A DNA stretch of 42,709 nucleotides from contig JAEEYU010000033.1 of assembly GCA_016288315.1 (NCBI GenBank), forward strand, positions 1-42,709. Direction: 5' to 3'. The notes beneath the pieces are model-generated. The model was not told where the DNA came from, ran no database searches, and worked only from the letters and a program-made list of their open reading frames with translations. Both the position numbers and the translations under genes were made by a program. Source of the stretch: Clostridiaceae bacterium. GTDB lineage: Bacteria > Bacillota > Clostridia > Oscillospirales > Acutalibacteraceae. This document shows positions 1,103-21,108 of this stretch, one piece after another (position 1 is the stretch's first letter; every line of letters begins with the position of its first letter).

Positions 1103-1183
1103 CCGTTCGCGCCGCAAAAACGCCCGCTCACGCCGCAGGTCAAAACCTGTGGCTTTTTCCGTGTTATGGTTATGCTGCAGTCG
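1103..1183 (+). promoter_or_regulatory. LytTR-type direct repeat plus activator-dependent promoter (module 1)
   Basis: Half-sites CCGTTCGCGCCG (1103) and CCGCTCACGCCG (1124) start 21 bp apart. TGTTAT lies at 1162-1167, 38 bp from the start of the second half-site, and TGCAGTC follows. The position expected for a -35 box holds GTCAAA, which is not a consensus. The same layout recurs at 8123 and 21,024. Direct half-sites with a 21-bp period are the known binding geometry of LytTR-domain regulators, and one is encoded at 18,990. The start point is inferred. Confidence 0.75.
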
Positions 1184-1205
1184 AGAGAAAAGCAAAGAGG
1201 TTTAT

Positions 1206-1304
1206 ATGAGAAACAAAAAAAAGATTAAAGAATTTGCATACTGGTTCATATTAATTGCGTTGCTTCTGCTTAAAATTGCGACACTGATTTCAAAATCATT
1301 CTGA
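1206..1304 (+). CDS. 32-residue single-pass membrane peptide, first gene of module 1
   Basis: This ORF begins with a strongly basic segment (MRNKKKIKEF) followed by one hydrophobic helix (WFILIALLLLKIATLI) and ends ISKSF. AGAGG lies about 6 bases before the ATG. It occupies the position taken by the 40/41-residue peptides in modules 2 and 3 but does not share their sequence. It is followed after 14 bases by a frameshifted member of that peptide family. Location is probably the cytoplasmic membrane. Function is unknown; small size and a typical SD are the only support for expression. Confidence 0.55.
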   Translation: MRNKKKIKEFAYWFILIALLLLKIATLISKSF

Positions 1305-1318
1305 AAGGAAGAAAAACA

Positions 1319-1445
1319 ATGATTATCTGTTCTTACTGTAGCCGCCATAATGGCAATCGGCACACTCATCTGCACATCCGATGACGGCGATTATGCAGCA
1401 TCCGCTCTGGCACAAATGAATTCAACCCGCAGAAAGTATTGTTAA
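1319..1445 (+). pseudogene. Frameshifted copy of the Cys4/Cys20 small membrane peptide
   Basis: The leader CTGAAAGGAAGAAAAACAATG and the codons for MIICS are almost identical to the intact gene at 8396. The distance from ATG to the conserved GGCAC codons is 40 nt here against 45 nt there, so the frame is lost and translation from the ATG ends after about 21 codons. In the shifted frame the rest of the family pattern is intact: GTLICTSDDGDYAASALAQM followed by NSTRRKYC. It is either a decayed copy or one needing ribosomal frameshifting. A sequencing error is less likely because several bases are missing. Confidence 0.65.
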
Positions 1446-1514
1446 TTAATCTGAAAACCCCGCGACCGGGTTTAGGGCAATTCAGATTACAATAAAATTC
1501 AAGGAGGAATTTCA

Positions 1515-1562
1515 ATGGAAACTATTCTGATAAACGGAGGCATCAAAAATGACAGCGATTAG
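1515..1562 (+). CDS. Possible 15-codon leader peptide overlapping the next gene
   Basis: A perfect AAGGAGG sits 8 bases before ATG 1515, and the frame encodes METILINGGIKNDSD before TAG. This ends 14 bases inside the following gene, whose own start (1549) has GGAGG within this leader. Such an overlap can couple translation of the large protein to the leader. It is also possible that this is just a tandem SD. Low confidence. Confidence 0.25.
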   Translation: METILINGGIKNDSD

Positions 1563-4500
1563 CAAGAAGGCAACAGCGTTTTTACTGGCGGTAATTATGC
1601 TTATGAGCTTGCTGCCGTTGAGCGTTATGGCGGCAGAAGCAACGACGCTGACATTCAAAGTTGAATCAGTTACTGCGATTACTGGCTCGTCGGCACAGGT
1701 GAAGATTGAACTTAAACACAACCCGGGTGTTTCGTCAATCAAGCTCAAAGTATCATACGACAGCAGTCTGGCCCTTACGAGTGTTCAGTATAACCCGGAA
1801 ATGGGCGGGCAGACACTGTCACCGGGTTCTCTGACATCCCCAGCGACACTCATCTGGCTGAATCCTTTTGACAACTTCAGCGGCGATGTAACATTTGCAA
1901 CGCTGACATTCAAAACACCGTCAAACATCACGGAATCATATACCGCAAATGTCAATGTCAGTTATGATGAGGACGATATTTACAATATGCAGGAGAACAA
2001 CGTTCCCTGCGAGGCGGTCAACGGAGGCATTATGGTCTTTGCGGGAGTTCCCGGTGACATCAATGGCGACGGAACCTGCAACAACAAGGACCTTACAAGA
2101 TTTTTCCAGTATCTTGCAAATTGGAATGTCACTGTTAACGAGATGGCAACTGATACAAACGGCGATGGCTCGGTAAATATGAAAGATTTAACCCGACTGT
2201 TCCAGTATCTCGCAAACTGGAATGTTGAAATTCATTACGGTCTCTCCGCGGAGCACACGCATTCAATAACATCGGTTCCGGCAAAAGCCGCCAACTGCAC
2301 CGAAGCAGGCTCCGCTGCATATTACAAATGCACGGGCTGCGGTAAAATGTTCAGGGATTCCGGCTGTCAGGAAGAAATCGGCGAGGATGATATATCTGTT
2401 CCCGCAAAAGGGCACACGGCTATTATTGACGAGGCCGTTCCCGCCACGACAACCTCAACCGGTTTAACAGAAGGCTCACATTGCTCGGTCTGCAACACCG
2501 TTATTGTTGAACAGGAGATTATTCCCAAGCTGGAAACAAAACAGTATGCAATCAACTACAACCTTACAAACGGAGACACCTATCTTGCAACTTTAGAAAT
2601 CAACAACCCGAACCCGGCGTTCTACACATCTGAAGACGGTTTGAAACTTAAAGAGATAAGCGTTCCCGGCTATACATTTGAAGGCTGGTATGACGGTTCA
2701 AGCGACAAGGCAAACAGAATTACAAATATTGCCAAAGGCGAGAAAGAGGAAATCGACCTTTACGCGCACTGGACAGCTAGATCATATAAGATACAGTATG
2801 ATTCCGATTTGATTCCCGTTAATGACGATACATATACAACCAACACGGGAAAGGTTCTCCCCACCCCAAAACTTTCGGGATATACTTTTGTAGGTTGGTC
2901 AGACAGCAAAGGCGATATTATCAGAAGAATTCCGGTCGGAACTACCGGAGACAAAGTATATTCCGCAAACTGGCTGAGCGACAGAAACCAGGCGAGAACA
3001 TACAAAAATGTCGGAGATCCGATTGTAATGGAAGAAGATAACAAAATCCTTTACACATATGAAATAGGTGAAATCAGGAATGTTCCTGTTTCAGTTATAA
3101 AAGACTTCGGAAAGATTGTTGACGGCGGCGTAGCACATGAGGAAACTGTAACACATTCAAAGACAGTAAGCCTTTCCGAAGCGCAGAAATATGAAAAAAC
3201 AGTCGGCAATGCGACAACAGAGAATTACGGTATCACACTTTCAAGCGGTTGGGAGGAAGGTTACGAAATATCCGAAGAATGGTGCCGTGAACACGGAATG
3301 ACCTTAGAGGAAGCGGAGCAATATTGCAGAAACGACACCAACAGTTGGTATGTCTCTAACGGACAAAGCGGTAGCAACAGTTCAACAACATTCAACACTA
3401 CCGATACAACAAACATGACAACCGGCACAAAGAATTCTTCCGGCACATCGGGTGCCAGCACAGAAGTATCAGCCTCCGCAAAACACACGGAAGAAAATCA
3501 CAGTGATTTCGGCTTTGAAGAAAAAATAAAAGCCGGAGGAGGCATTGGACCGGTTTCAGTTGAAGCTTCAGTCGGTGCCAGCCAGTCTTTTGGCTCAAGT
3601 TCGGAGGATGAAACAACAAACTCATCCAAAAACTCTCTGAATTCCAGTGTTACGGTGTCTGACGGAAATTCTCATCAAAGCGGAACTGTTACACATACCG
3701 GCTCAAATTCGACAAGCACAAGCGGTTGGAACACGGAATCCGGACGCAGCGCCAGTCAGTCCGTAACAAGCACGCAGTCCACCGCAAAGAAGCTTTCGGA
3801 AGCAATCAGTCAGAAAACGGGGTACGGCCAATCATATATTAATACCGGTTCAGAATCGGCAAGCCAAGGCTTCAGCGCACAACAAAGTTCTTCTGTCAGC
3901 TATTCAACAGGCATAACTTATTCTACCGAGGAAACAGAAACAATTACTGAAACGATTTCAACATCAAACACAATCGGCGGATATCACCGTTGGGTTTGGG
4001 CAACTACCGCACACGTTTTTCTTGTTGTCGGATACGATATTGCAACATCATCGTATTTTGTGTGCAATTTCTCGATTCTTGATGACAAGCTCAGCAGATT
4101 TGAAGACTATTCATATGATACATCAACTTATGACGATAACCAGACAGGTGTTATCACTTTTGAGATTCCGACGGACATAAAAGAATATGTTAAAGAGCGT
4201 GTAGCCGGCAGTGACGGTCTTCAGTATTCAAGAGATGGAAAAGTAACCGGATACAATGGCAACGACGATTTCGTTATCATCCCGGAATACAAAGTAATTA
4301 ACGGAACGGTTATCAAGGTAACCGGTATTTCCGAAAACGCTTTCAAAAACAAGGTAAAATTACAGAACGGTGAAGATGAGTTACTTGGAATACAACTTTC
4401 TGATTTTATCACCGAGATTCCTGACGGAGCATTTTACGGCTGCAGTTCTTTGAAATATATTGACTTCAATAATGTCAATAAAATAGGAAGCAACGCTTTT

Positions 4501-6435
4501 GCGGGATGCAGCAGTTTAAAGGTAGTCAAACTCAGTGACAATATCACTGTTCTCGGCAGCAACGCTTTTAACGGCATCGATGCGCTGCTTGTAAACGCAG
4601 CCAATAAATCAATTGCCGAATATGCCGTGAATTCGGGAGCCAAGGCAATTGCGTTGGTTGTATCGGAAAAATGCGCCGATCTGAAAAACACAACATTGAC
4701 AATACCGGCGGGAACGGAATATTTCGGATTCTACGGTGCAATTTACTCTCCGAGAACATTCACCAATTTAAAAATAGATTCAAATGCAGAGGAAACACTG
4801 ATTCAGAATGCGGATTTTGTATCAACCGGAAAAGCTCCTGTTAAAATTGCGTCAAGCAATATAATCTGGGCGGAAAGCGATGTCTCGGCATCAAATTTCG
4901 GCATTGTCTTAACTGCGGAACATATTAATCTTTCGGTTTACGGAGAATCAACTGTTTCATCTAATACGAGCAACGCAATTCTAACAAGAGATCTTTCCCT
5001 TGCCGCTATCAATGAAGAACTGTATTCCCAGTTCCATCTTGACGGAAAAATAATGATATGGGGAAATATAATCGAAAACGGTCTGATTTCGTTTATGTCG
5101 GGAAAAGTTGAACATATTTCCGAAACAGAATACACTCGGTATTTAGCCGGCACATACACCCTGACATTTGATGCCAATGGCGGCTCAGTTAGTGAAACTC
5201 AGAAAACCGTATATTACGGCGAAGTAATAGGATCTCTTCCTTCGCCCACACGCACCGGTTACGCCTTTGAAGGCTGGTATACAGCCAAAACTGGAGGAAC
5301 GAAGATAACATCGACAACTGTTTCAACATTTGATGCCAACACGACTGTTTACGCACACTGGAATCCCAACGCATACACCGCAACCTGGAACACCGTAACA
5401 GGATGCACTATTACAGTCAAACGCACAAGCTCACCCTATGCCGGCGCGGCAACGGGCAGCCTTACAAGCGGAGCAACTGTTTATTACGGCGACATTCTGA
5501 GCATTACATACACGGCAAATACAGGCTACACACTCAAGACAAAAGGCAAAACATCAATTACGGTTACCGGCAATGTCACACCATCCGACATTTACGCAAC
5601 AGTAACGGTTAATTCCTATACCGCATCCTGGTCAACGGGCACCGGATACACAATAACAGTCAAACGCACAAGTTCCCCCAAAGCCGGCGCGGCAACGGGC
5701 AACCTTACAAGCGGAGCAACCGTTAATTACAGTGATGTTCTGAGCGTCACATACACAGCAAGCACCGGTTATTCGATTGCAACCCACGGCAAAACATCAA
5801 TTACAGTTACCGGCAATGTCACAGCATCCGATATTTACGCAACGGCAACACCGAACAACTACACCTACACAGTAAAATATGTTTCGGTTAACGGCACAAA
5901 TCTCGGCTCAGATTCGGTTACAAAGGCGTTTGGAACAACCAATACAATTACTCCGCCTGGAAAATACGGATATATTACGCCGCCAGCGCAAACTGTGAAA
6001 TGGGATTCAACATCGAAAACCATCACCTTCAAATATTCCATTGACAACAGCGGAATCGGCGGTAGCAGCAGCAGAGGTTTTGTTGACACGAGCGTAGGCA
6101 CGTGGGCAACCGTTAATATCTCATACTCAATCATCGGCAGAACCGCAAACTCGGTTACAATCAGAGCAACCTGCACGATGATAAAAAATAAAAACATCTA
6201 TACTCCTTATGAATATTCGTTCAGCTGCGCGGGTCAGGATAAAGAGATAATTCCCTTCGGCGCATGGAACAATTACAACAACGCAACGGCTACTCAGACA
6301 ATTGACTTTACAATTTCCGCGGGAACGGGCAGAGGAAGCACAAATGTCTCATGGAGTGTTCCCTGCCGCAACTATTACGGAACCGTTATTGACAACGAAG
6401 GCTATACCGACACGGTTGTCTATCCCGCATATTAA
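1549..6435 (+). CDS. Secreted cohesin-dockerin-InlB-LRR surface protein
   Basis: 1628 residues. A signal peptide covers residues 1 to about 29 (LLPLSVMA/AEA). A type I-like cohesin domain follows (about 33-160), then a dockerin with two calcium-loop repeats (GDINGDGTCNNKDLTRFF at 169, DTNGDGSVNMKDLTRLF at 203). Next come a CxxCGK-type Cys segment (237-310), two InlB/Flg_new-type beta repeats with GYTFEGW and GYTFVGW (331-475), and a Ser/Thr-rich region of about 400 residues (484-880). Three BspA-type LRR units follow (about 890-1040), then another InlB repeat (1203) and two 81-residue repeats from 1275. The end is Tyr-rich, with no LPXTG motif and none of the C-terminal helix seen in neighbours. 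Cohesins bind dockerins, so a chain carrying both could form polymers; that is inference. The gene lies downstream of regulatory module 1 and 31 bp before the next gene. ATG 1549 has GGAGG 8 bases upstream. Confidence 0.85.
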   Translation: MTAISKKATAFLLAVIMLMSLLPLSVMAAEATTLTFKVESVTAITGSSAQVKIELKHNPGVSSIKLKVSYDSSLALTSVQYNPEMGGQTLSPGSLTSPATLIWLNPFDNFSGDVTFATLTFKTPSNITESYTANVNVSYDEDDIYNMQENNVPCEAVNGGIMVFAGVPGDINGDGTCNNKDLTRFFQYLANWNVTVNEMATDTNGDGSVNMKDLTRLFQYLANWNVEIHYGLSAEHTHSITSVPAKAANCTEAGSAAYYKCTGCGKMFRDSGCQEEIGEDDISVPAKGHTAIIDEAVPATTTSTGLTEGSHCSVCNTVIVEQEIIPKLETKQYAINYNLTNGDTYLATLEINNPNPAFYTSEDGLKLKEISVPGYTFEGWYDGSSDKANRITNIAKGEKEEIDLYAHWTARSYKIQYDSDLIPVNDDTYTTNTGKVLPTPKLSGYTFVGWSDSKGDIIRRIPVGTTGDKVYSANWLSDRNQARTYKNVGDPIVMEEDNKILYTYEIGEIRNVPVSVIKDFGKIVDGGVAHEETVTHSKTVSLSEAQKYEKTVGNATTENYGITLSSGWEEGYEISEEWCREHGMTLEEAEQYCRNDTNSWYVSNGQSGSNSSTTFNTTDTTNMTTGTKNSSGTSGASTEVSASAKHTEENHSDFGFEEKIKAGGGIGPVSVEASVGASQSFGSSSEDETTNSSKNSLNSSVTVSDGNSHQSGTVTHTGSNSTSTSGWNTESGRSASQSVTSTQSTAKKLSEAISQKTGYGQSYINTGSESASQGFSAQQSSSVSYSTGITYSTEETETITETISTSNTIGGYHRWVWATTAHVFLVVGYDIATSSYFVCNFSILDDKLSRFEDYSYDTSTYDDNQTGVITFEIPTDIKEYVKERVAGSDGLQYSRDGKVTGYNGNDDFVIIPEYKVINGTVIKVTGISENAFKNKVKLQNGEDELLGIQLSDFITEIPDGAFYGCSSLKYIDFNNVNKIGSNAFAGCSSLKVVKLSDNITVLGSNAFNGIDALLVNAANKSIAEYAVNSGAKAIALVVSEKCADLKNTTLTIPAGTEYFGFYGAIYSPRTFTNLKIDSNAEETLIQNADFVSTGKAPVKIASSNIIWAESDVSASNFGIVLTAEHINLSVYGESTVSSNTSNAILTRDLSLAAINEELYSQFHLDGKIMIWGNIIENGLISFMSGKVEHISETEYTRYLAGTYTLTFDANGGSVSETQKTVYYGEVIGSLPSPTRTGYAFEGWYTAKTGGTKITSTTVSTFDANTTVYAHWNPNAYTATWNTVTGCTITVKRTSSPYAGAATGSLTSGATVYYGDILSITYTANTGYTLKTKGKTSITVTGNVTPSDIYATVTVNSYTASWSTGTGYTITVKRTSSPKAGAATGNLTSGATVNYSDVLSVTYTASTGYSIATHGKTSITVTGNVTASDIYATATPNNYTYTVKYVSVNGTNLGSDSVTKAFGTTNTITPPGKYGYITPPAQTVKWDSTSKTITFKYSIDNSGIGGSSSRGFVDTSVGTWATVNISYSIIGRTANSVTIRATCTMIKNKNIYTPYEYSFSCAGQDKEIIPFGAWNNYNNATATQTIDFTISAGTGRGSTNVSWSVPCRNYYGTVIDNEGYTDTVVYPAY
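5371..5856 (+). repeat. Two tandem 243-bp units (81 residues each)
   Basis: Units start at 5371 and 5614 and share long identical stretches such as GTCAAACGCACAAG and GGCAAAACATCAATTAC. The encoded repeats contain TVKRTSSP.AGAATG and GKTSITVTGNVT. A third unit begins in phase at 5857 but diverges at once. The close DNA match points to recent duplication. Confidence 0.8.
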
Positions 6436-6466: not shown

Positions 6467-8041
6467 ATGAAAAAAGCATTTTTGATTTTTCTTACGGTAT
6501 GTTCCGTATTTCTGTTCGGCGTTACGGCATTTGCGGCCGGATCACCGGAATTTGCAGTATCTTCCGCAAACGCTGCTCCTGGAAGCAGCGTGGAAGTTAC
6601 GGTATCGGTTAAAAACAATCCCGGTCTGACATCAATGAAGTTCAATGTTTCATTCGATTCGGTTCTTCAACTGGAAAAAGTTGAATACAACACAGCCTTT
6701 AAAGGCCAGACCATGCAGCCGAATCAGATGACAAGCCCCGTTACGCTTATCTGGCTGAGCCCCTTTGAAAACTGCGGACAGAACGGAGTGTTTGCTACCT
6801 TGACTTTCAAAGTCAGTTCTTCGGCAAAAAACGGCGACACGGCGGACATTGTTCTTGCCTACAACCCGAACGATGTTTATAACCTCAACGAAGAAAACGT
6901 CGGCTTTGCGGTTACAAACGGAAAAGTTACGGTCGAGAGCGGAAACGCTGCGCCTGCCGCAGGTGTTACACTGAACAAATCTGCCGTAACCGTAAAAGTC
7001 GGCGAAACGGAAACCCTGTCGGCAACGGTCAAGCCCGACAATGCCGGAAACAAAAATGTTGAATGGTCATCCGAAAACACAACAGTAGCCTCGGTAAGCA
7101 ACGGCAAAATTACCGGAAACAAAAGAGGCACAACAACAGTTAACGCCACAACCGAAGACGGCGGATATACCGCGGCGTGCTCGGTAACGGTAGTATGCGA
7201 CCATAAAAACAAAACCAAAATTCCGGCAAAAGATTCAACCTGCACGGAGCAGGGGTGGGACGAGTATTATGTTTGCGACGACTGCGGGCAAACACTTTCT
7301 TCTGACGGCACCGGGGAGGTTGCCGCTCGCCCCTTTCGCTGCCTCGCAGAACACACAGGAGGCACGGCAACATGTAAATGCAAAGCGGTTTGCAGTGTGT
7401 GCGGCAGTCATTACGGCAATTATGCTCCTCATAATTATAATTCTGAAATTGAAAATGAAAAGGCAATGAAAAAGCAAGGCACCTGCCGCGGGAAAACTGT
7501 ATATTACTACTCCTGCTCCGTATGCGGTGAGTGTGAAAAAAATGACGCACATACCTTTGAAGGATCTTTTGGCGAACACCGGTTCACAAACTATGTTTAC
7601 AACAATGACGAAACAGCCGAACACGATGGCACCGAGACCGCGAAATGTGATTATTGCAACGCAACAGACACCCGAGCAAGAACCATTAATATATATATTC
7701 GCGCACGCTCAACAGCAAATGTTGCCTATGAAGCAAATGTAACAATCACGGCAGAGGGCTGCAATGTGCCGGCAGGATGCAGGCTTGTTATTTGCGACGG
7801 CGACAGAACAGTTGCAACAGGCAGCCGTGAGAAAGTCAGTTTCAATGCAGGCAATATGACAAAAACCAAAAGTTTTACCGTAAAAATCATTACTTCAACG
7901 GGTTCGGTAAGAAAAAACAGCGCGGGAGCCGAAATAAGTCAGAAAATCAAAGTCAATGTTTTCGACGGCTTTTTTGCCAGATTGTTTGCCCTCATCAGAA
8001 AACTTATGGGAACCACTCCGAATATAGAAATTAAACCTTAA
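6467..8041 (+). CDS. Secreted cohesin and Big2 domain protein with C-terminal helix
   Basis: 524 residues. Signal peptide 1-24 (FLFGVTAFAA). A cohesin domain at about 27-163 is clearly paralogous to that of the upstream protein (SPVTLIWLSPFE here, SPATLIWLNPFD there). A Big2 immunoglobulin-like domain follows at about 168-245 (LNKSAVTVKVGETETLSATV), then a long region with Cys pairs of CxxCG type (246-405) and a beta-rich domain. Near the end is a short hydrophobic/basic helix, FFARLFALIRKLMG. It starts 31 bp after the preceding gene with CGGAGAGG before ATG, so it is in the same operon, and a strong hairpin terminator follows. It has no dockerin, so it may offer its cohesin as an extracellular anchor for dockerin-bearing partners. 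That role is inferred. Confidence 0.85.
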   Translation: MKKAFLIFLTVCSVFLFGVTAFAAGSPEFAVSSANAAPGSSVEVTVSVKNNPGLTSMKFNVSFDSVLQLEKVEYNTAFKGQTMQPNQMTSPVTLIWLSPFENCGQNGVFATLTFKVSSSAKNGDTADIVLAYNPNDVYNLNEENVGFAVTNGKVTVESGNAAPAAGVTLNKSAVTVKVGETETLSATVKPDNAGNKNVEWSSENTTVASVSNGKITGNKRGTTTVNATTEDGGYTAACSVTVVCDHKNKTKIPAKDSTCTEQGWDEYYVCDDCGQTLSSDGTGEVAARPFRCLAEHTGGTATCKCKAVCSVCGSHYGNYAPHNYNSEIENEKAMKKQGTCRGKTVYYYSCSVCGECEKNDAHTFEGSFGEHRFTNYVYNNDETAEHDGTETAKCDYCNATDTRARTINIYIRARSTANVAYEANVTITAEGCNVPAGCRLVICDGDRTVATGSREKVSFNAGNMTKTKSFTVKIITSTGSVRKNSAGAEISQKIKVNVFDGFFARLFALIRKLMGTTPNIEIKP

Positions 8042-8122: not shown

Positions 8123-8205
8123 CCGCTCGCGCCGTAAGATCGTCCGCTCACGCCATGAACGGCATTTCTCCGTTTTTTCGTGTTATTGTTTAATTGCAGT
8201 CAGGG
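8123..8205 (+). promoter_or_regulatory. LytTR-type direct repeat plus promoter (module 2)
   Basis: Half-sites CCGCTCGCGCCG (8123) and CCGCTCACGCCA (8144) start 21 bp apart. TGTTAT lies at 8181, 37 bp from the start of the second half-site, followed by TTGCAGTCAGGGAAAA. The -35 position reads AACGGC, so an activator is probably needed. The leader box matches module 3 over at least 14 bases. Confidence 0.78.
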
Positions 8206-8242: not shown

Positions 8243-8365
8243 ATGTTACTTATTTGCTTACCGGTTATTATTGCAACGGCGGTTGCAGGCGCTTTTATCT
8301 GCGCATCGGAAGACAATGACAGAGCGGCTCTGGTTCTTGCAGAAATGAACTCGGCAAAACAGTAA
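8243..8365 (+). CDS. 40-residue Cys5/Cys20 small membrane peptide
   Basis: The peptide starts MLLICLPVIIATAVAGAFIC and continues with an acidic-to-neutral tail ending LAEMNSAKQ. One hydrophobic helix covers residues 2-20 with no basic residue before it. GGAGG lies 8 bases before the ATG. It matches the peptide at 21,156 through the tail (CTSDDNDKAA there, CASEDNDRAA here, both ending MNSAK). Longer in-frame starts exist upstream but lack an SD. It is the first gene after regulatory module 2. Function is unknown: it could be a small membrane regulator, a secreted signal or an antimicrobial peptide. Confidence 0.7.
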   Translation: MLLICLPVIIATAVAGAFICASEDNDRAALVLAEMNSAKQ

Positions 8366-8395: not shown

Positions 8396-8563
8396 ATGAT
8401 TATCTGTTCAATTATCACAGCGGCCGTAGTGATTACTGTCGGCACAATTATCTGCACATCGGGCGGGAGCAGCTTTGCAACATCCGTTCCTGCAAGATAT
8501 GATTATGAAAAACATTTACGCGAATCCGACGCAATCAGAAAAATGATAAACAAGCACGCTTAA
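8396..8563 (+). CDS. 55-residue Cys4/Cys20 small membrane peptide
   Basis: The peptide starts MIICSIITAAVVITVGTIIC and continues TSGG, then a charged tail with KHLRESDAIRKMINKHA. The helix and Cys pattern match the family (Cys at 4 and 20), but the tail is longer and different. AAGGAAG precedes the ATG, identical in context to the frameshifted copy at 1319. It follows the 40-residue peptide by 30 bp and is followed by a terminator-like hairpin, so module 2 appears to drive a two-peptide operon. Confidence 0.68.
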   Translation: MIICSIITAAVVITVGTIICTSGGSSFATSVPARYDYEKHLRESDAIRKMINKHA

Positions 8564-8724: not shown

Positions 8725-8822
8725 GTAAAATGGATTTTTATATAGCAAATAACGGCAAATTGCATTTTTGAAAAAGACTTTTTCGGGTTGACTGACTTGA
8801 TTTGAATACGGGGGTTGTCGGG

Positions 8823-11800: not shown

Positions 11801-14800
11801 CAACGGTTTAACCGATGTTTATTATAAAGGCACCGAAGAACAGTGGAACGAAATTGAATCCGGTGACAACAATGAAAATTTGCTGAACGCAAATATAACA
11901 TACAACTTTGTTCCCGGCGAATATACACTCAATATTGGTTATCGGATGGTTGACGGTAACGATGCAGTTAAGCCCGCAGATTACAGTGCGTCGTTTGCTC
12001 TCGACGAAAGCTACAGTGTTACCTCTCCTGCTGTTACGGGATATACTCCGGATATTGCTGCCGTTGAAGGCAGGATGGACAGTCTTGACGGCAAAACAGA
12101 AACAGTAAACTATATACCCGATATTTATTATGAAAACAATCTGTTTGATGTTTCAGAGTGGTATAACAACCTAAAAACAAAGCCAAATAACGGCACAAAC
12201 AGTCCGGATGCGAAAGTAAGCCTTTCCGGAGAAAAAGTTGTTTTTGAAACAGGTGAAAATGTTCAAAACCCTGATTGCTATACTTTATGGAGCGCAGGCA
12301 ACGGTGACACCTCTTATTATAAAATTCCGTGTGAACCGAACACAGAATATACATTTCTTTACAATGTTGAACTTGAAGGTGAAGGCATAAGTCAAATTAT
12401 TTTATTTGAATATGCAGAGAATTATACCGATCCAATAGCAGGTGAAATAGGTTGGCATGTTTTGTGCCCGGACTATCAATCTGATGCCGGCACTTATGTA
12501 AAAACCTGCACAACAGCCGAAAACGCAGCATATATCGGTGTTCGTGTCGGCACTGCAGGAGTTGCAGGCACAAAGGCAGCTTATTCAAATATAATGTTGC
12601 TTAAAACAAGCGATATAAAGCCATACACCATCACATACAGATACGGAGAAGTCAACGGCAATGCCGTTTATAAGACAATAACTCAGAATTTCGGCGCGGC
12701 GGTCACGCCTCCCGATGACCCTGAGTTCAGCGGTTATACCTTTGTCGGTTGGGATTCCGAAATTCCCGGAACAATGCCCGCAGAAAATCTTACCATTAAT
12801 GCGCTTTGGATAAGCAGCACGGGAACTTATGGTCCGCTAACATACAGAATCGACAACAACAAAGAAGTTACCATTACCGATTGTGATAAAGAAGCAACCG
12901 GCGAACTTGTCATACCCGAAACAATTGATGGTTATCCGGTGACAAGCATTGGCGGAAATGCATTCCGTTATTGCAGACTTACAAATATTGAAATTTCAAA
13001 CAGCATAAAACGAATAGATGATTACGCCTTCTTTAATTGTAACGGTTTTACAAATATAGATATTCCCTATGGCGTTGAAACAATCGGTAATTCCGCTTTT
13101 GCAGCTTGTTTTTGGTTAACAGACATTAATATTCCGAATAGTGTAATAAGCATCGGCAGTTCTGCTTTTGAGAGATGTTCCAAGTTAAAAAGTGTGGAAA
13201 TCCCCAACAGTGTATCAAGTATCGGCAGTTCTGCTTTCAGAGATTGCACAGGACTTACAAGCATAGAAATTCCCGACAGTGTAACAAGCATAAGCAATTC
13301 TGCGTTCAGCGGATGCACAGGACTTACAAGCATAGAAATTCCCAACAACGTAACAAGCATCGGCAATTCTGCGTTCAGCGGATGCTCCGGGCTTGAAAGT
13401 ATAACGGTGTCGCAGGGCAATTCAATATATCATTCAACAAATAACTGTCTCATTGAGACAGTAAGCAGCACTTTAATTCTCGGATGTAAAAACAGCGTTA
13501 TTCCCGCAGACGGAAGTGTAATGAGCATAGGAGATTCTGCGTTTTACAACTGTTCAGGGCTTACAAGCATAAATATTCCCGACAGCGTAACAAGTATCGG
13601 CGATGCTGCTTTTAAAGATTGCACAAGACCTACAAACGCAACAATACCCAGCAGTGTAACAAGCATCGGCAGTTCTGCGTTCAGCGGATGCACAGGACTT
13701 ACAAGCATAGAAATTCCGGACAGTGTAACAAGTATCGGCAGTTCTGCATTCAGTGGATGCACCAGATTGACTGAAATAACCATTCCCGGAAGTGTAAAAA
13801 ACATAGAGTCACGCATGTTTGAAGACTGCACGGGACTTGAAAGCGTTACAATCGGCAACGGTGTTGAAAGCTTGGGTGATCTGGCGTTTTTATACTGCCT
13901 GAATCTGAAAGAAATCGAATTACCCGAAAGTGTAACAAGCATAGGGTGGCTTGCTTTCTATGTGTGCAGAGACCTTGAAAAAATAACTGTTTCACAAGGT
14001 AATCCGGTTTATCATTCGGCAGACAATTGCGTAATTGAAACAGCAACTGATACTTTGACTCTCGGATGCAAAACAAGTGTTATTCCCGCCGACGGAAGTG
14101 TTACAAAAATAGGTCATTATGCGTTTGCCGGCTGTATAGACCTTAAAAGCATAACCATTCCCGTAAGCGTAACCGACATTGGTGTTCAAGCATTTGAATT
14201 ATGTGTAAGTTTGAAAGATGTAACGATTTTGGAAAATGTTGAAACAATAGGCGAAGGTGCCTTTTATTACGTTGGTAACATATCTTATTCGGAAAATATG
14301 ACGGCAGAAGGCTCTCCCTGGGGTGCCAGATGTGTTAACGGATTTGTTGACGACAATCTGATTTATTCCGATGAAAGCCGAACGGAATTGTGCGCTTGCT
14401 CTACAACGGCAAAAGGTGAAATCACTATTCCCAGTAGTGTTACGAATATAGGCGACTATGCGTTTGTTTTTTGCGAGGGAATTACAGATGTTACAATCGG
14501 CAGCGGCGTTGAAAGCATAGGTGAATCGGCGTTCGCCTTTTGCTCCGGTCTTGCGAGCGTAACCGTTCCCGTTGGCGTAAAAAATATCGGTGCATCCGCG
14601 TTTACCGAATGTTTCAATCTTACCGATGTAAATTACACCGGCACTGAAGAGCAGTGGAATGAAATCAGCATTGCAAGCGACAACGAACCGTTGCTGAACG
14701 CAAACATAAAATATTATGACGGGTCGCTCACAATTAATTATCTTATTGAAGGCAGCGACGAGCCCCTTCGTGAAGCGTATAAAGACAGCTCACTTTCTTA

Positions 14801-16568
14801 CGGTGATTCTTACAGCGTGGTTTCGCCTGAGGTTCCCGGCTATCACCTTGTTGATGACGGGCAGACAACAGTAAACGGTGTTATGGACTTTGACCCGGTG
14901 AGCGTCAATGTATATTATGCCCCGGGCGATTACCCGCTGACAATTAACTATGTTATGAGCGACGGCAATAATGCCGCCAAGCCCGAAAACCATACGGAAA
15001 ACATAACCTTCAACACCGCATACAGCTTTCCCTCGCCTGCCGTTACGGGTTATACACCCGATGTTGATGTTGTTACGGGCACAATGGACGCCGAAGGTAA
15101 AACCGTTACGGTTACATATTCGCCGAACATATATAGCATTAAATACTATGTTGACGGTAAGGTTTATTTAAGTGTTAAAGTCGCATTCGGCAGCGAAGTT
15201 ACCGCACCGGAAAACCCGCAAAAATTAAGTTATCTTTTTGCCGGCTGGACTCCGGAAGTTCCTGCGACAATGCCCGCAAAAAATCTCAGCTTCAATGCTT
15301 TATGGACCGATGTTTACGGCATAGGCGAAGAAACATACAGTTTCAAGAACTTTTCAAATAAAGACATAAAATGCTCACACAGGAATTATAACGGGCACTG
15401 TTTCGGAATGGCAGCAACAAGCTCCGGCTATTATATCGGCAAGCTTGACAAAGCTGATATCGGCGGGGAAAACAAAACCCTTTATTCGCTTTCAATCAAC
15501 AATAATAAAGTTAGGGAGCCGATTTGCACTTATCTTTTAATACAAGGTCCCGTAGGTCCGTTTGGAACCAAAGGCGCAGAGCGTGAAGCTATAGTTGCGG
15601 GCGGCAGCATCGATCTGAAAAAAGAAAAAAACACATCATCCGACTGGAACGCCTGTGTAAACTACATTAAAAATCACAAATACGACTATAAAGGTTCGCT
15701 CAATGTCGGAGTATGGTATAAAGACAGAGGAGGTCATGCGGTTAATTTCCTGTATTACAAAGAGGTCAACAATCAGCAGAGAATCTACGTTTACGACAGC
15801 AACTATCCCGGTTACGAAATGTATTATTACAAAAAAGGTTCATATATTTATGAAAACTCCGACGATCCGCGATACAAATACGGCGACAGCCCTGCAATAA
15901 AAGGAATTGACCTGATGGATGTTGCTACATATTTTGATTATGCAAAAAGTGTTTCTTTGCTTGATTACATTTTTACATCAATAAAATCAGTTGAAATTGA
16001 AAACGCCGAATACAGCTATATGAAATGTGACGGCGAATTAAGCGACTATGTTATTTTTAAGATTCCCGAAGGTGTCGAAGAAGTTAAAATTACACCGTTG
16101 GAAGATAACGCATCCTTCGAATATATGGGCGTTGAATACACGTTCGGAAAAGTTGATGAAGACACTTACGGTGTTCTTGAAGTTTTAACGGAAAGCGCCG
16201 AAGAGGGCAAAAAGACCGAATTTGTTATTGAAAATGCTCCCGCACAGGTGCAGATTAAAAATTATGTTCCCGAACGCACAGACGATTACCGGACATCAAT
16301 AACCTTCACTGCGACAATCACTGACCTCAATGATGATGTAACCGTTCACTGGTTCATTAACGGCAAGGATTCAGGAACAGGCAAAACGTTCAAGGTCGAA
16401 GAAGCAAAAGCCGATTACACTGTTCAGGCAAAACTCATAGACAAGTCAGGCAAAACCACGTCTGAAAGTGAAAAGGAAACGGTGAAAATAAAGCACGGAT
16501 TCTTTGACATTATCATCTGGTTCTTCAGGCACCTCTTCAACCCCGGCGCATATGATAAAAAACAATAA
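8823..16568 (+). CDS. Giant BspA-like LRR surface protein with papain-like protease domain
   Basis: About 2581 residues from ATG 8823; an in-frame TTG at 8802 adds 7 residues but lacks a clear SD. After a signal peptide (MIKKFRGIVSLLLCVVLLFG) come a WTLSDDGVLTISGTG start motif (about 54) and BspA-type LRR_5 units (AF.GC..L..I.IP.SVTSIG) in blocks at about 100-1023 and 1337-1966. Six copies of a NPVYHS.GNCIIET insertion interrupt the blocks. MucBP-like segments lie at about 1033 and 1970, a beta-rich segment at about 1106-1260, and Flg_new repeats with YTFVGW and YLFAGW at about 1268 and 2104. Residues about 2170-2380 look like a papain/C39-type cysteine peptidase: GHCFGMA (Cys2193), GGHAVNF (His2305), YVYDSNYPG (Asp2325). 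The end has a hydrophobic helix, FFDIIIWFFRHLFNPG. Likely exported and surface-associated. Substrate unknown; protease activity is predicted from the Cys/His/Asp order only. Confidence 0.85.
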   Translation: MIKKFRGIVSLLLCVVLLFGNVAVGGEGFADFVASVYDALSIRASAVESGTCGDNLTWTLSDDGVLTISGTGDMKDFTYNSSDAWRQYKTLIKELIIGQEITSIGSYAFNSCLALTNVEFPDSIVSIGLCAFESCERLTNIVIPDSVTSIGGNAFGSCYNLEYITIGDGITSIDGGVIGGCSIFSIDGNLKSITIGKGVASIGEGIISQCCNLESITVSPDNPVYHSAGNCIIETASKTLISGCKNSVIPSDGSVTSIGNFAFILCENLENIIIPSSVTSIGDSAFFECYALKSITFPESVTSIGDYAFLECYALESITIYDSITSIGEKAFLKCNKLTDVYYTGAEEQWNEINISEGNEKLLSADIHYVIEPLSVLEYEINDGKVTITGCNQNANGEIVIPETIEGYPVTSIGKNAFQNCSELTDLIIPASVTSIDTNPFTGCTGLESITVDENNTVYHSSGNCLIDTESKTLVAGCKNSVIPADGSVTSIGNAAFGGCSGLAELTVPPCVSKIGDGAFSLCSGLNKLVVYSPLTGTGAFNGCSGLKTAGPIGGGYDFEFGWFDTIPPYAFYGCSGLERIILPNSIGEIGYSAFSYCSSLESIKIPFFVTTIYGGSDYLEDLFGEIGSPGDSPGKGTFYGCTSLTNVIIGKNVTTIGPKAFFNCPNLTNVYYLGSADEWREISIVNNNGYNDSLVNANIIYNSPSSLAFLVYSINNNEVTITGIDIRESNFALAGIMPDSTEFVIPDSIEGYPVTSIRFDAFNNCTELTAISIPGSVNDIEPGAFSGCSSLESLIVSNDNPVYHSDGNCIIKTDSKTLIAGCKNSNIPDDGSVTSIENRAFYGCKNLENIEIPEGIETIGAFAFYGCEKLKNVNIPDSVSHIALGAFSGCSGIDSLSVSPDNPVYHSSGNCIIRTQTGSLALGCKNSVIPTDGSVQTVGIYAFVGCSELEHIAIPDGVTSIGDYAFSGCSGLSFVVIPDSVTTIEHNAFSGCNGLTDVYYKGTEEQWNEIESGDNNENLLNANITYNFVPGEYTLNIGYRMVDGNDAVKPADYSASFALDESYSVTSPAVTGYTPDIAAVEGRMDSLDGKTETVNYIPDIYYENNLFDVSEWYNNLKTKPNNGTNSPDAKVSLSGEKVVFETGENVQNPDCYTLWSAGNGDTSYYKIPCEPNTEYTFLYNVELEGEGISQIILFEYAENYTDPIAGEIGWHVLCPDYQSDAGTYVKTCTTAENAAYIGVRVGTAGVAGTKAAYSNIMLLKTSDIKPYTITYRYGEVNGNAVYKTITQNFGAAVTPPDDPEFSGYTFVGWDSEIPGTMPAENLTINALWISSTGTYGPLTYRIDNNKEVTITDCDKEATGELVIPETIDGYPVTSIGGNAFRYCRLTNIEISNSIKRIDDYAFFNCNGFTNIDIPYGVETIGNSAFAACFWLTDINIPNSVISIGSSAFERCSKLKSVEIPNSVSSIGSSAFRDCTGLTSIEIPDSVTSISNSAFSGCTGLTSIEIPNNVTSIGNSAFSGCSGLESITVSQGNSIYHSTNNCLIETVSSTLILGCKNSVIPADGSVMSIGDSAFYNCSGLTSINIPDSVTSIGDAAFKDCTRPTNATIPSSVTSIGSSAFSGCTGLTSIEIPDSVTSIGSSAFSGCTRLTEITIPGSVKNIESRMFEDCTGLESVTIGNGVESLGDLAFLYCLNLKEIELPESVTSIGWLAFYVCRDLEKITVSQGNPVYHSADNCVIETATDTLTLGCKTSVIPADGSVTKIGHYAFAGCIDLKSITIPVSVTDIGVQAFELCVSLKDVTILENVETIGEGAFYYVGNISYSENMTAEGSPWGARCVNGFVDDNLIYSDESRTELCACSTTAKGEITIPSSVTNIGDYAFVFCEGITDVTIGSGVESIGESAFAFCSGLASVTVPVGVKNIGASAFTECFNLTDVNYTGTEEQWNEISIASDNEPLLNANIKYYDGSLTINYLIEGSDEPLREAYKDSSLSYGDSYSVVSPEVPGYHLVDDGQTTVNGVMDFDPVSVNVYYAPGDYPLTINYVMSDGNNAAKPENHTENITFNTAYSFPSPAVTGYTPDVDVVTGTMDAEGKTVTVTYSPNIYSIKYYVDGKVYLSVKVAFGSEVTAPENPQKLSYLFAGWTPEVPATMPAKNLSFNALWTDVYGIGEETYSFKNFSNKDIKCSHRNYNGHCFGMAATSSGYYIGKLDKADIGGENKTLYSLSINNNKVREPICTYLLIQGPVGPFGTKGAEREAIVAGGSIDLKKEKNTSSDWNACVNYIKNHKYDYKGSLNVGVWYKDRGGHAVNFLYYKEVNNQQRIYVYDSNYPGYEMYYYKKGSYIYENSDDPRYKYGDSPAIKGIDLMDVATYFDYAKSVSLLDYIFTSIKSVEIENAEYSYMKCDGELSDYVIFKIPEGVEEVKITPLEDNASFEYMGVEYTFGKVDEDTYGVLEVLTESAEEGKKTEFVIENAPAQVQIKNYVPERTDDYRTSITFTATITDLNDDVTVHWFINGKDSGTGKTFKVEEAKADYTVQAKLIDKSGKTTSESEKETVKIKHGFFDIIIWFFRHLFNPGAYDKKQ
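13113..13763 (+). repeat. Nearly identical 69-bp LRR repeat units
   Basis: Successive 23-residue LRR units start every 69 bp (for example 13,182, 13,251, 13,320, then 13,557 and 13,695). They share runs such as CTTACAAGCATAGAAATTCC and TCTGCGTTCAGCGGATGC. Most other LRR units in the gene are much more diverged, so this block has expanded or been homogenised recently. A YHS-type insertion (13,389-13,556) divides it. Confidence 0.75.
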
Positions 16569-18917: not shown

Positions 18918-18928
18918 ACAAAAAAATA

Positions 18929-18957: not shown

Positions 18958-18989
18958 TAATATGATTACTCATTTAAACGGGGTGTGTT

Positions 18990-19682
18990 ATGAAAATCGC
19001 GATTTGTGACGATGAAAACATATGGCTCGATTCCGTTGTAACCGTTCTTGAAGATTACTCAATTGAGAGAAAGCTTGACATAGAATATCAATCTTTCAAC
19101 AGTTATCTGCTTCTTGAACCGAAAACGGATGAGTTTGACATTTTCATAATGGATTACCAGACTCCCGAAATCGACGGTCTTACTTTCGCGAAAAAAATCC
19201 GCGAAAAATACGGCGACAAAAAAACGATTATCTTCCTGACATCTTACCAGGAGATTGTTTATGACACCTTCGCCGTGCGCGTGCACAGGTTTCTGATAAA
19301 GCCGGTAGATAAAGCCAAGATGTTCGAAGCGCTGGACGCGGTCATCGGCACCAGCAACCTGAACAGCACGCTTTCCGTCAAGAGCGACGGCAAGGTTGAA
19401 ATTATACCCATACGGGATATTCTCTACATTGAGGTAGCCGACAAGGAGTGCTATATCTGCCTGAGTGAAGACCAGATAGTCTGTCACAAACCCATTTCAC
19501 AGCTTGAAGACGAGCTCGTTTCACGCGGCTTTTTCAGAACTCACAGGACCTACCTCGTGAATATGGGCAACATACGCAGTTTTGACGCGAAAACAATAGA
19601 ATTCAGCAACGGCGAAACAATTCCGATGAGCAAACGCCGCTATAAAGAATTCTGCAGCGCTTATCTCGATTTTAACGGATAA
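18990..19682 (+). CDS. LytTR-family response regulator (AgrA/LytR type)
   Basis: 230 residues. A receiver domain covers residues 1 to about 120: acidic residues D7 and D8, phospho-acceptor D55 in FIMDYQTPEIDG, T in FLTSYQE, and K in RFLIKPVDK. A LytTR DNA-binding domain follows (about 130-228) with DILYIEVADKECYI, FFRTHRTYLVNMGNI and PMSKRRYKEF. Such regulators bind direct repeats about 21 bp apart and activate weak promoters. Three such sites occur in this window (1103, 8123, 21,024), so they are the obvious targets. The kinase gene follows after 15 bp. Transcribed from the promoter at 18,929. Confidence 0.93.
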   Translation: MKIAICDDENIWLDSVVTVLEDYSIERKLDIEYQSFNSYLLLEPKTDEFDIFIMDYQTPEIDGLTFAKKIREKYGDKKTIIFLTSYQEIVYDTFAVRVHRFLIKPVDKAKMFEALDAVIGTSNLNSTLSVKSDGKVEIIPIRDILYIEVADKECYICLSEDQIVCHKPISQLEDELVSRGFFRTHRTYLVNMGNIRSFDAKTIEFSNGETIPMSKRRYKEFCSAYLDFNG

Positions 19683-19697
19683 AAACGGGGGAAGGGA

Positions 19698-20966
19698 ATG
19701 CTTACATACATTCTTCATTTACTGTTGTTAACCACTTCGGTGTCGATGATTCTTGTTTCGCTTTATGTGTTTTTCGGTTATGAGGCGAGAAAAAACAAGG
19801 TGCCGTTCATTGCCGGGTCGGCGGTTTCGGCTGTGGTGGCTGTTCTTCTGATTTATTTCACAAAGGGCAACGAAGACGCCGAATTTATGTTTGACCTTTG
19901 GCAGATTGCGACAAACATGTTCCTGCCTTATCTGCTGTTTAAATCCGGCAGAAAAGCAACCTTCGCGCTATACGGTTTTGTTCTGCCCTCTTTTTCGGAT
20001 ATAATTGCCTCGCTGATAAGTTCAAAAATCGGCGATATTTCCGAAAACGAGACTATTTTGATGTATATTGCCATTTTTGTTGCAACAACATTATTGATAA
20101 TAATTTTACGCAAAGCTCTGCCGATAAAATTCACGCCGGAATTCCTTGAAACAATTCCCGTCTATGTTTATGTAATAATTTTCATTTATCTTTTTTCCAA
20201 TTACTACAGCATTGAACTGGCGCAGGACGCTTCGTTCCATGTGGAAGTCGCGAACATTCTCAAGGTTGTTTCGGCAATCCTCGTAACCGTTTCGGTGGTT
20301 GTGATTGTAATACGCTACATAAATGTTCTGAATCTTCAGAAAGAAGCCGAAAAACAGCTTGAAGCCGAAATTCATCATTATGAAGATATGATGCGCAAGA
20401 ACAGCGATATCCGTTCATTCAGGCATGATTACAAAAACAACCTTTTCTCGCTCAACGCCCTTATGACCGACGGCAGAACAGATGAAGCGCAGAAATATAT
20501 CTCCGAACTCGCGGGTGAACTGGAAAACACTTCCAACAATTACCAGACGGGCAACTACCTTGCTGACGCCATTATTTCGGAGAAATCGGAAAACGCTTCA
20601 AAGAGCGGCACAAGAATCAGCTTTTCGGGCACAATTCCGAAAGACTGGGTCAAAAACAACGACCTGTGCGCGATTCTTTCCAATTCGCTTGACAACGCTG
20701 TCAGGGCATGCGAACCGATTGAAAACGCGGTTGTCATGGTTAGTTCAAAAGAAACGCCGAACAGCGTTGTGATTTCTGTCGCCAACCCCGTAACAAAACG
20801 GGTTGAAATCAAGAACAACCGGATAAAAACCACTAAATCGGATTCACAGAACCACGGAATCGGTCTTGCAAATGTTGAGAAAACAGCGAAGAAGTATAAC
20901 GGATACATGAAACTCTCCTGCACCGACGCCGAATTCGAACTCAAAGTCGGTTTGATAAACAACTGA
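19698..20966 (+). CDS. AgrC-like GHKL sensor histidine kinase
   Basis: 422 residues. The N-terminal half (1 to about 212) has about six hydrophobic segments, as in AgrC-type peptide sensors. A coiled segment (LQKEAEKQLEAEIHHYEDMM) leads to the H-box with His243 in SFRHDYKNNLFSL. The ATPase part has an N-box NSLDNAVRACE and a G-box DSQNHGIGLANV, typical of the HATPase_c_5 group. It should phosphorylate the LytTR regulator encoded 15 bp upstream. No agrB/agrD-like pair is in the window, so the stimulus is unknown; the small membrane peptides of modules 1-3 are candidates only. A terminator follows. Confidence 0.92.
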   Translation: MLTYILHLLLLTTSVSMILVSLYVFFGYEARKNKVPFIAGSAVSAVVAVLLIYFTKGNEDAEFMFDLWQIATNMFLPYLLFKSGRKATFALYGFVLPSFSDIIASLISSKIGDISENETILMYIAIFVATTLLIIILRKALPIKFTPEFLETIPVYVYVIIFIYLFSNYYSIELAQDASFHVEVANILKVVSAILVTVSVVVIVIRYINVLNLQKEAEKQLEAEIHHYEDMMRKNSDIRSFRHDYKNNLFSLNALMTDGRTDEAQKYISELAGELENTSNNYQTGNYLADAIISEKSENASKSGTRISFSGTIPKDWVKNNDLCAILSNSLDNAVRACEPIENAVVMVSSKETPNSVVISVANPVTKRVEIKNNRIKTTKSDSQNHGIGLANVEKTAKKYNGYMKLSCTDAEFELKVGLINN

Positions 20967-20987
20967 TAACAATTATAAATAATCTCC

Positions 20988-21023
20988 AAACAGTCCTGCA
21001 CCCTTTCGGGCAGGGCTGTTTTT
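20988..21023 (+). terminator. Terminator of the two-component operon
   Basis: AAACAGTCCTGC pairs with GCAGGGCTGTTT and ends in a run of T residues. The last T is immediately followed by the first half-site of module 3. Confidence 0.85.
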
Positions 21024-21108
21024 CCGTTCACGCAGAAAAACCGACCGTTCGCGCAGCAGTCGTCCGGCAGGTCCGGTTTATATGTTATTATTCAGTTGCA
21101 GTCAGGGA
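21024..21108 (+). promoter_or_regulatory. LytTR-type direct repeat plus promoter (module 3)
   Basis: Half-sites CCGTTCACGCAG (21,024) and CCGTTCGCGCAG (21,045) start 21 bp apart. TGTTAT lies at 21,083, 38 bp from the start of the second half-site, and TTGCAGTCAGGGAAAA follows. It lies directly behind the kinase gene, which ties the regulator to its probable targets. Confidence 0.8.

What the first reader, a model, noticed from the sequence alone, without database searches (positions are those of the whole stretch)
1103..21108. Three copies of one LytTR-type promoter module around a LytTR two-component system
At 1103, 8123 and 21,024 two half-sites of the form CCGYTCRCGC start exactly 21 bp apart. 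In each case TGTTAT follows 37-38 bp after the start of the second half-site, then TTGCAGTC or TGCAGTC, with no -35 box. The 21-bp direct-repeat period is the known geometry of LytTR regulators, and the only regulator in the cluster is a LytTR protein, encoded immediately upstream of module 3 with its kinase. The GC-rich half-site differs from the AgrA and ComE sites I know. The regulon link is inferred.
Basis: partly seen in the sequence, partly recalled or inferred. Interest (0 to 1): 0.85.

Follow-up and report, generated by a model that had tools for sequence, protein, structure and literature searches.

The report
LytTR switch for surface-protein genes
Three near-identical promoter switches sit around the genes of a two-component regulator and very probably let it turn on large surface proteins, together with a previously unnamed family of tiny membrane peptides, in a Clostridia-type bacterium; the switch is of a known kind, but its targets and peptides are new.

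Summary
TGTTAT is better read as the start of an extended -10 (TGn-TATnnT) 37-38 bp after the second half-site.

The inferred link to the adjacent LytTR regulator survives comparative tests. G030, with a 71%-identical regulator, has seven such modules by pattern and nine by profile, one just behind its regulator-kinase pair as in the window. Relatives at 50% and 46% have the same geometry with a shifted half-site, GCGTTCATACCG, again right behind the kinase gene. Three modules found blind in other genera also lie directly behind LytTR regulator-kinase pairs, there before ABC transporter genes. The geometry is canonical for LytTR; the half-site resembles the AlgR box CCGTTCGTC.

New: the three window units (one copy frame-broken) and five of nine G030 units carry an unnamed 40-55 aa single-span peptide, often before secreted proteins (BspA-type LRR, cohesin/dockerin, subtilase, CHAP/ricin lectin).

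Verdict: a LytTR regulon of ordinary kind with an undescribed peptide family. Binding, signal and peptide role are untested. Four draft genomes with modules or peptides lack a detected close orthologue of the regulator, so other LytTR proteins may use similar sites.

The parts
1103..1170 (+). Module 1: half-sites 1103-1112 and 1124-1133 (21 bp apart), extended -10 TG-T-TATGGT at 1162-1170
1206..1304 (+). 32-aa ORF, basic N-terminus then hydrophobic (MRNKKKIKEFAYWF...); first ORF after module 1; only a sub-threshold Pfam match
1319..1433 (+). Frame-broken copy of the small membrane peptide family (profile match starts at 1323-1326, in another frame from the ATG at 1319)
   Evidence: an intact relative, P0127, exists
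1549..6435 (+). 1628-aa protein with signal-like N-terminus: dockerin I, Flg_new repeats, LRR_5; presumed module 1 target
6467..8041 (+). 524-aa protein with signal-like N-terminus: cohesin and Big_2
8123..8189 (+). Module 2: half-sites 8123-8132 and 8144-8153, extended -10 TG-T-TATTGT at 8181-8189
8243..8365 (+). Small membrane peptide, 40 aa, MLLICLPVIIATAVAGAFICASEDNDRAALVLAEMNSAKQ
8396..8563 (+). Small membrane peptide, 55 aa, MIICSIITAAVVITVGTIICTSGG...
8802..16568 (+). 2588-aa BspA-type LRR protein with MucBP; possible module 2 target, 238 bp behind the second peptide and so perhaps with its own promoter
18990..19682 (+). LytTR response regulator, 230 aa; presumed binder of the modules
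19698..20966 (+). GHKL histidine kinase, 422 aa, six predicted TM spans, H-box FRHDYKNN
21024..21091 (+). Module 3: half-sites 21024-21033 and 21045-21054, extended -10 TG-T-TATTAT at 21083-21091; 57 bp behind the kinase gene
21156..21281 (+). Small membrane peptide, 41 aa, MLIICSVVFAVAAVAGTLVCTSDDNDKAAMILAKMNSAKIN
21349..22605 (+). 418-aa protein with signal-like N-terminus; presumed module 3 target
   Evidence: no Pfam family
22640..23008 (+). 122-aa protein with signal-like N-terminus, last gene behind module 3
   Evidence: no Pfam family

Best explanation
The three modules are LytTR-activated promoters of one regulon run by the neighbouring two-component system. The six-span GHKL kinase (19698-20966) senses an unknown outside signal and phosphorylates the response regulator (18990-19682). 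The regulator binds as a dimer to the two GC-rich half-sites 21 bp apart and recruits RNA polymerase to an extended -10 promoter (TGn-TATnnT, no evident -35) 37-38 bp further on. Transcription then starts near the conserved TGCAGTC and expresses small single-span membrane peptides and large secreted surface proteins. Shown by sequence: site anatomy, co-occurrence and co-divergence with the regulator, position behind LytTR regulator-kinase pairs, and coding constraint on the peptides. Inferred: binding, activation (not repression), operon extent, secretion (from N-termini read by eye), signal, and what the peptides do (most likely small membrane accessories or exported peptides of the surface programme).
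For: Geometry far above chance. Ten regions picked by the peptide gene, not by the motif: 9 of 10 carry a direct repeat of 8/10 or better at exactly 21 bp; the next spacing (20) reaches 5 of 10; 60 mononucleotide shuffles give mean 0.8, max 4 at 21 bp. Extended -10 at +37 in 19 of 23 modules, +38 in 3, +35 in 1. G030: 7 pattern hits, 9 profile hits, and the same regulator-kinase-module order at the 71% pair. G004 and G021: orthologues at 50% and 46% with half-site GCGTTCATACCG; in 45 genus genomes that pattern gives 4 hits in G004 and 1 in G021, hits in six other genomes only at 3 mismatches, and one control hit; one hit in each lies at the stop codon of the kinase gene. Of 398 family genomes only G000 and G030 have more than one extended-pattern match. 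Blind test: of 41 other pattern sites held as loci, three score 8 or more of 11 for the extended -10, all at +37 (G053, G046, G365), and all three lie directly behind a LytTR regulator and GHKL kinase, before ABC transporter genes. Published geometry matches. Targets are surface-type in the window and in G030, G003 and G004 where tested.
Against: No binding or expression data. G037 and G042 (87% and 79% complete) have modules, and G003, G016 and G042 have peptides, but no close orthologue was found in these four: best hits 2.6e-28, 6.5e-32 and 1.3e-30 in G037, G042 and G003, none at 1e-8 in G016, which is 96% complete; the G042 and G003 hits sit in another neighbourhood shared by both. G053, G046 and G365 show that LytTR regulators too distant to reach E<=1e-60 have similar half-sites, so site and orthologue are not exclusive. 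The G003 peptide has no recognisable module within 330 bp. G000 has two weaker LytTR matches elsewhere that could also bind. Of the five regulator-carrying genomes of other genera only G391 has a clear module near the regulator; G370, G099 and G228 have a weaker repeat, G332 none, and UBA1767 none.
Confidence: 0.85

Rival explanations
1. A peptide quorum-sensing loop: the small membrane peptide next to the kinase (21156) is the precursor of an exported autoinducer sensed by the six-span kinase, and the other copies are further signals or bacteriocin-like products, as in blp, sil or com systems.
For: Kinase has six predicted TM spans and a FRHDYKNN H-box, and its best NCBIfam match is AgrC, well below the cut-off. 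A peptide gene follows the regulator-kinase pair behind the module. Peptides are under coding constraint: differences by codon position 166/126/293 over 528 codons.
Against: G004 and G021 have the same regulator, kinase and module with a signal-peptide-like protein, not this peptide, behind the kinase. The peptide family was not found at E<=1e-4 in the other 396 genomes; the equal-sized draw, which I take to be the same genomes (not all are listed), holds five further regulator carriers. AgrB was not found in G000, G030 and G004. Several different paralogues per genome are unusual for one signal.
Confidence: 0.2
2. The modules are bound by another LytTR protein of the genome, not (or not only) by the adjacent one.
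For: G000 has two more LytTR-type matches, on C21. Modules occur in G037 and G042, which lack a close orthologue of the adjacent regulator. More distant LytTR pairs in G053, G046 and G365 have near-identical half-sites, so recognition is shared within the family.
Against: The module sits directly behind the kinase gene in G000, G030 (71% pair), G004 and G021, and the half-site changes together with this regulator. Even in G053, G046 and G365 the module belongs to the adjacent pair.
Confidence: 0.1
3. The three segments are recent copies of a repeat or mobile promoter-peptide cassette whose similarity reflects duplication only, without regulation.
For: Each segment carries promoter plus peptide; a recombinase-like fragment lies at the left edge of the contig.
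Against: Similarity is highest in half-sites, extended -10 and start region, while the sequence between diverges. In G004 the half-sites changed at the same positions in several modules while spacing stayed fixed. Downstream genes differ from unit to unit.
Confidence: 0.04

Closest known systems
Sil/Blp/ComE-type LytTR promoters of streptococci (SilA sites: two 10-bp direct repeats, 11-bp spacer; passages of PMC2766830)
   Same: Same half-site length and exact 21-bp period; adjacent kinase of GHKL type; small peptide genes in the units.
   Different: Half-site sequence (SilA letters not seen); no AgrB found; cargo is large surface proteins, not bacteriocins. Blp and ComE details are recalled.
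AlgR binding sites, core CCGTTCGTC and variants such as CCGTTCATC (passages of PMC4064291)
   Same: Half-site core CCGTTCG/CCGTTCA as in the window and relatives.
   Different: [quoted passage not shown] different host group.
LytTR Regulatory Systems such as HdrRM (passages of PMC6193735)
   Same: 9-bp direct repeats 12 bp apart, an extended -10, repeats a few bp upstream of the -35 position.
   Different: LRS regulators lack a receiver domain and pair with an inhibitor membrane protein; here there is a full response regulator and a histidine kinase.
AgrA/AgrC
   Same: LytTR response regulator plus multi-span GHKL kinase; direct repeats upstream of promoters (passages of PMC4227749).
   Different: No AgrB found in G000, G030 or G004; NCBIfam AgrA and AgrC models matched far below their cut-offs.

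Membership tests
LytTR-activated promoter | Pair of 9-10 bp direct repeats with 10-13 bp between them | tested here: met
   10-bp repeats, 11-bp gap, three of three; definition from passages
LytTR-activated promoter | Repeats just upstream of the -35 position or of an extended -10 | tested here: met
   Extended -10 at +37 in 19 of 23 modules; a -10 hexamer at +40 puts the -35 position 7-8 bp behind the second half-site, against 4-11 bp in S. mutans
LytTR-activated promoter | Co-occurs and co-diverges with a LytTR regulator | tested here: met
   G000, G030, G004, G021 and, with more distant regulators, G053, G046, G365; exceptions G037, G042 (modules) and G003, G016 (peptides) without a close orthologue
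LytTR-activated promoter | Bound and activated by the regulator | not testable with these tools
   needs footprint and expression data
LytTR response regulator (AgrA/ComE class) | Receiver plus LytTR domain with phospho-acceptor Asp | tested here: met
   PF00072 and PF04397; D7, D8, D55, T84, K104 invariant in the 25 sequences of A4; roles of these residues recalled
HPK10-type peptide-sensing kinase | About six TM spans and FRHDYxNN-type H-box with GHKL ATPase | tested here: met
   (class name and features recalled, TM count by a simple hydropathy script)
Agr quorum sensing | AgrB processing protease | tested here: not met
   No PF04647 match in G000 (78% complete), G030, G004; one in G021, about 225 kb from its regulator on the same contig; of 14 control genomes only one rang, below the cut-off
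ComDE/Blp quorum sensing | Double-glycine leader peptide and C39 peptidase transporter | not tested
   Peptides show no GG leader by eye; the transporter was not searched
LytTR Regulatory System (LRS) | Regulator without receiver, paired with inhibitor membrane protein | tested here: not met
   Receiver domain present and partner is a kinase
Any named small-peptide family | Match above cut-off in Pfam or NCBIfam | tested here: not met
   no PDB relative

The most novel reading that the evidence does not exclude
The 40-55 aa peptides are a new class of exported signal: a membrane-anchored peptide with an acidic tail (ICTSDDxDxAAxxLAxMNS), made without AgrB, read by the six-span kinase, so that several paralogous peptides and the surface-protein programme form one self-amplifying, cell-to-cell circuit in gut Clostridia.
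Probability: 0.17. Interest if true: 0.75.

Novelty: new member of a known kind. Interest (0 to 1): 0.5.

Why it matters
It gives a sequence-defined regulon (site, regulator, kinase, targets) for giant BspA-type LRR and cohesin/dockerin proteins in uncultured Clostridia; four library searches listed no paper that describes such control (listings only). Related regulators with two half-site versions, CCGTTCGCGCCG and GCGTTCATACCG, make LytTR site recognition testable by natural covariation, and the module can be used to find LytTR targets blind, as it did for ABC transporters in three other genera. It also turns up a small-peptide family with no database name. The promoter architecture itself is textbook LytTR, which limits the surprise.

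Tried and rejected
Tried and dropped. (1) The TGTTAT-as-hexamer reading: the alignment across 23 modules favours TGn-TATnnT. (2) Canonical Agr: AgrB found in one (G021) of the four genomes searched. (3) Module upstream of the window's own regulator gene: no repeat of 8/11 or better at 21 bp in the 260 bp before it; G391 and G005 do have one there. In G370, G099 and G228 a weaker 21-bp repeat (GGTACAGAAA / GGTAYRAAAA) in the divergent intergenic region may be a module facing the divergent gene; read by eye only and not counted. (4) Other hits at 2-3 mismatches: one search gave matches in 31 of 99 genomes and in 21 of 398. In one search the nineteen genomes with one hit each compare with 30 hits of the reversed control pattern (my count of the table). 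Of 41 sites outside the three window modules, G030, G037 and G042 that were held as loci, 38 score 7 or less of 11 for an extended -10 and were not counted; many hits had no locus and were not looked at. (5) My own first reading that the G053 and G046 hits were not modules was wrong: scoring them showed full modules behind LytTR pairs, as for G365. This raises the case for a LytTR module and lowers the case that only this orthologue uses it; I moved the rival 'another LytTR protein' from 0.08 to 0.10 and left the rest. (6) Of 80 loci around more distant regulators, 14 have an LRR-rich ORF nearby by a crude regular expression, so the LRR link is not universal. (7) Pfam and NCBIfam matches of the peptides were all below cut-off.

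Selection caveats: the scans require or start from the 21-bp spacing, and searches take the best extended -10 in +34 to +44 and +35 to +40, so fixed spacing is independent evidence only. Model R1 was built from 15 modules, which it finds by construction; what it added are G042:C22, G037:C51:239-322 (already one search hit) and two weak G004 sites. In one search the shuffle control was mononucleotide, seven sources times five, one hit. The family searches score a limited number of first-look candidates per genome.
Full report
Observation. The pattern search gives three perfect matches at 1103, 8123 and 21024, against 0.02 expected at up to 3 mismatches. Half-sites occur nowhere else in the window and, as pairs, nowhere else in the 2.15 Mb, 78%-complete assembly except one 3-mismatch site without an extended -10. 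All three point towards the genes that follow them. The distance of 37-38 bp to TGTTAT and the following TGCAGTC are as reported. Comparison of 23 modules shows that TGTTAT is the first part of an extended -10, TGn-TATnnT: TG is kept in 17 of 23, and the element starts at +37 in 19, +38 in three and +35 in one. The element was taken as the best in a +34 to +44 range.

Surroundings. The regulator (18990-19682) has receiver and LytTR domains and the kinase (19698-20966) a GHKL ATPase domain, six predicted spans and FRHDYKNN. The best NCBIfam names are BtsR and AgrA for the regulator and AgrC for the kinase, all far below cut-off. The units contain proteins with signal-like N-termini (read by eye): dockerin/Flg_new/LRR_5 (1628 aa), cohesin/Big_2 (524 aa), a 2588-aa BspA-type LRR protein, and two proteins without a Pfam family.

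The ORFs at 8243, 8396 and 21156 and a frame-broken copy at 1319-1433 are one family: a hydrophobic stretch without basic residues in front, then C-T/S-S-D/E and an AA..LA tail in most members. A profile found it in 45 genus genomes as follows: G000 (four, one broken), G030 (five), and one each in G016, G003 and G042; the remaining matches have E of 0.02 or more. In 398 family genomes only G000 and G030 match at E<=1e-4. Differences between paralogues fall on codon positions 1/2/3 as 166/126/293 over 528 aligned codons in 13 non-independent pairs, as for translated genes. Pfam, NCBIfam and PDB give no family above cut-off. Of the nine G030 units five start with a family member by profile and one (C66) with a diverged ORF of like form; the other three have an 87-aa ORF, another protein, or an LRR protein directly. 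In G030 C63 the next gene is convergent, so there the peptide can be the whole unit. G004 has another small ORF with one hydrophobic stretch and an acidic tail behind a module.

Test of the regulon link. (a) Close orthologue: G030 (contigs named Tb.RUG.35) has two orthologues, 71% and 57%, 7 pattern hits and 9 profile hits (R1 was trained on modules including these nine). One module follows the kinase of the 71% pair as in the window; two diverged ones lie in the cluster of the 57% pair. (b) More distant orthologues: G004 (50%) and G021 (46%) have the half-site GCGTTCATACCG. Of 45 genus genomes 8 match that pattern at up to 3 mismatches: G004 four times (three exact), G021 once (one mismatch), six others only at 3 mismatches; the control gave one hit. 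In both, one module starts at the stop codon of the kinase gene. With a fifth, weaker site G004 has five. (c) Specificity: 21 of 398 family genomes match the extended pattern, G030 seven times, G000 three times, nineteen others once each, against 30 hits of the reversed control by my count of the table. (d) Motif-free test: of ten regions chosen by the peptide gene, nine have a direct repeat of 8/10 or better at exactly 21 bp; the next spacing (20) reaches five; 60 shuffles reach at most four at 21. The tenth is G003. (e) Blind test in other genera: of 41 further pattern sites held as loci, three reach 8 or more of 11 for the extended -10, all at +37: G053, G046 and G365. Each lies directly behind a LytTR regulator (profile E 1.6e-43, 2.3e-45 and 6.6e-41) and a GHKL kinase and is followed by an ABC transporter gene. 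Chance sites would not do this, so the module marks LytTR pairs in general, with different cargo.

Results against. G037 and G042 have modules (two and three by profile), and G042, G003 and G016 have peptides, without a close orthologue of the regulator; the assemblies are 87, 79, 83 and 96% complete. The best G042 and G003 hits are other LytTR proteins beside hom-like genes (gene name recalled). Test (e) also means that the half-site is not private to this orthologue group: G053, G046 and G365 show no regulator at E<=1e-60. UBA1767 and G332 show no clear module. Only 14 of 80 loci around more distant regulators have LRR-rich ORFs nearby by a crude test.

Wider neighbourhood. In 398 family genomes seven have the regulator at E<=1e-60: G000, G030 and five of other genera. 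In four of these five (G370, G099, G228, G332) a kinase-like ORF follows (H-box seen in G370 and G228) and then a protein with LRR matches, several in three and one in G332; in G391 the regulator stands alone with a 21-bp repeat and an extended -10 upstream. The regulator-kinase-LRR link therefore looks older than the peptide family. Proteins in G030 units or clusters include CHAP/ricin-lectin, Flg_new/Big_3, subtilase and LRR proteins.

Known frame. Papers seen as passages only: PMC2766830 (SilA sites are two 10-bp direct repeats with an 11-bp spacer, and one base more or less abolishes activity), PMC6193735 (9-bp repeats 12 bp apart, 4-11 bp upstream of -35, an extended -10 at hdrRM), PMC11347149 (canonical 9-bp repeats 10-13 bp apart; most LytTR regulators bind upstream of -35 and activate), PMC4064291 (AlgR core CCGTTCGTC, variant CCGTTCATC) and PMC4227749 (AgrA repeats near -60). 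The window's modules meet this geometry: a -10 hexamer at +40 would place a -35 hexamer at about +17, 7-8 bp behind the second half-site. Searches for LytTR with BspA, with dockerin, with BspA and Ruminococcus, and (three of four terms) with leucine-rich repeat, two-component and Oscillospiraceae listed no paper that by title or abstract start describes this regulon (listings only).

Mechanism. Most likely the phosphorylated regulator binds the tandem half-sites on one face of the helix and brings RNA polymerase to an extended -10 promoter without -35; the products are small membrane peptides and surface proteins. Binding, direction of control and signal are inferred. The peptide as autoinducer is possible but not favoured, because orthologous systems run without it and AgrB was not found in G000, G030 and G004.

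Verdict. By kind it is a LytTR regulon with canonical geometry; new are the target set, the peptide family and a half-site that shifts with the regulator.

Noticed in passing
window 1319-1433: The small peptide copy behind module 1 is split between two frames, while an intact close relative (P0127) exists in another assembly; pseudogene or assembly error cannot be told apart here.
   Followed up: partly
window 1-340 (- strand): Left edge of the contig encodes the N-terminal part of what looks like a serine recombinase (by eye from the translation), next to module 1.
   Followed up: no
window 1549-8041: Both proteins behind module 1 begin with a similar cohesin-like stretch by eye (Pfam calls it only in the second), and the first also has a type I dockerin.
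   Followed up: partly
positions just behind the extended -10 in the modules (e.g. 8195-8201): TGCAGTC near the expected transcription start is kept in all three window modules, two G030 modules and one G004 module, with near matches in others, although it is in untranslated sequence; reason unknown.
   Followed up: partly
L043 529-3940, L044 845-4255, L193 1-2985 (- strand): In three other genera (G053, G046, G365) the same module lies between a LytTR regulator-kinase pair and ABC transporter genes: a second cargo type for this promoter.
   Followed up: partly
L276 (G391) around 9656, - strand: An orphan regulator relative in another genus has a 21-bp repeat (GTTCGTACCC / ATTCGTACCC) and extended -10 right upstream, suggesting autoregulation.
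   Followed up: partly
L174 7912-8175, - strand (G030 C10): The module behind the G030 71% regulator-kinase pair is followed by an 87-aa ORF without a hydrophobic stretch by eye (MKNFESGKLVRLTTANENG...) in place of the membrane peptide; not identified.
   Followed up: no
L173 (G030 C5): G030 has a second regulator-kinase pair (57%) inside its own LRR cluster with two diverged modules, so a duplicated regulon with drifting sites may exist in one genome.
   Followed up: partly
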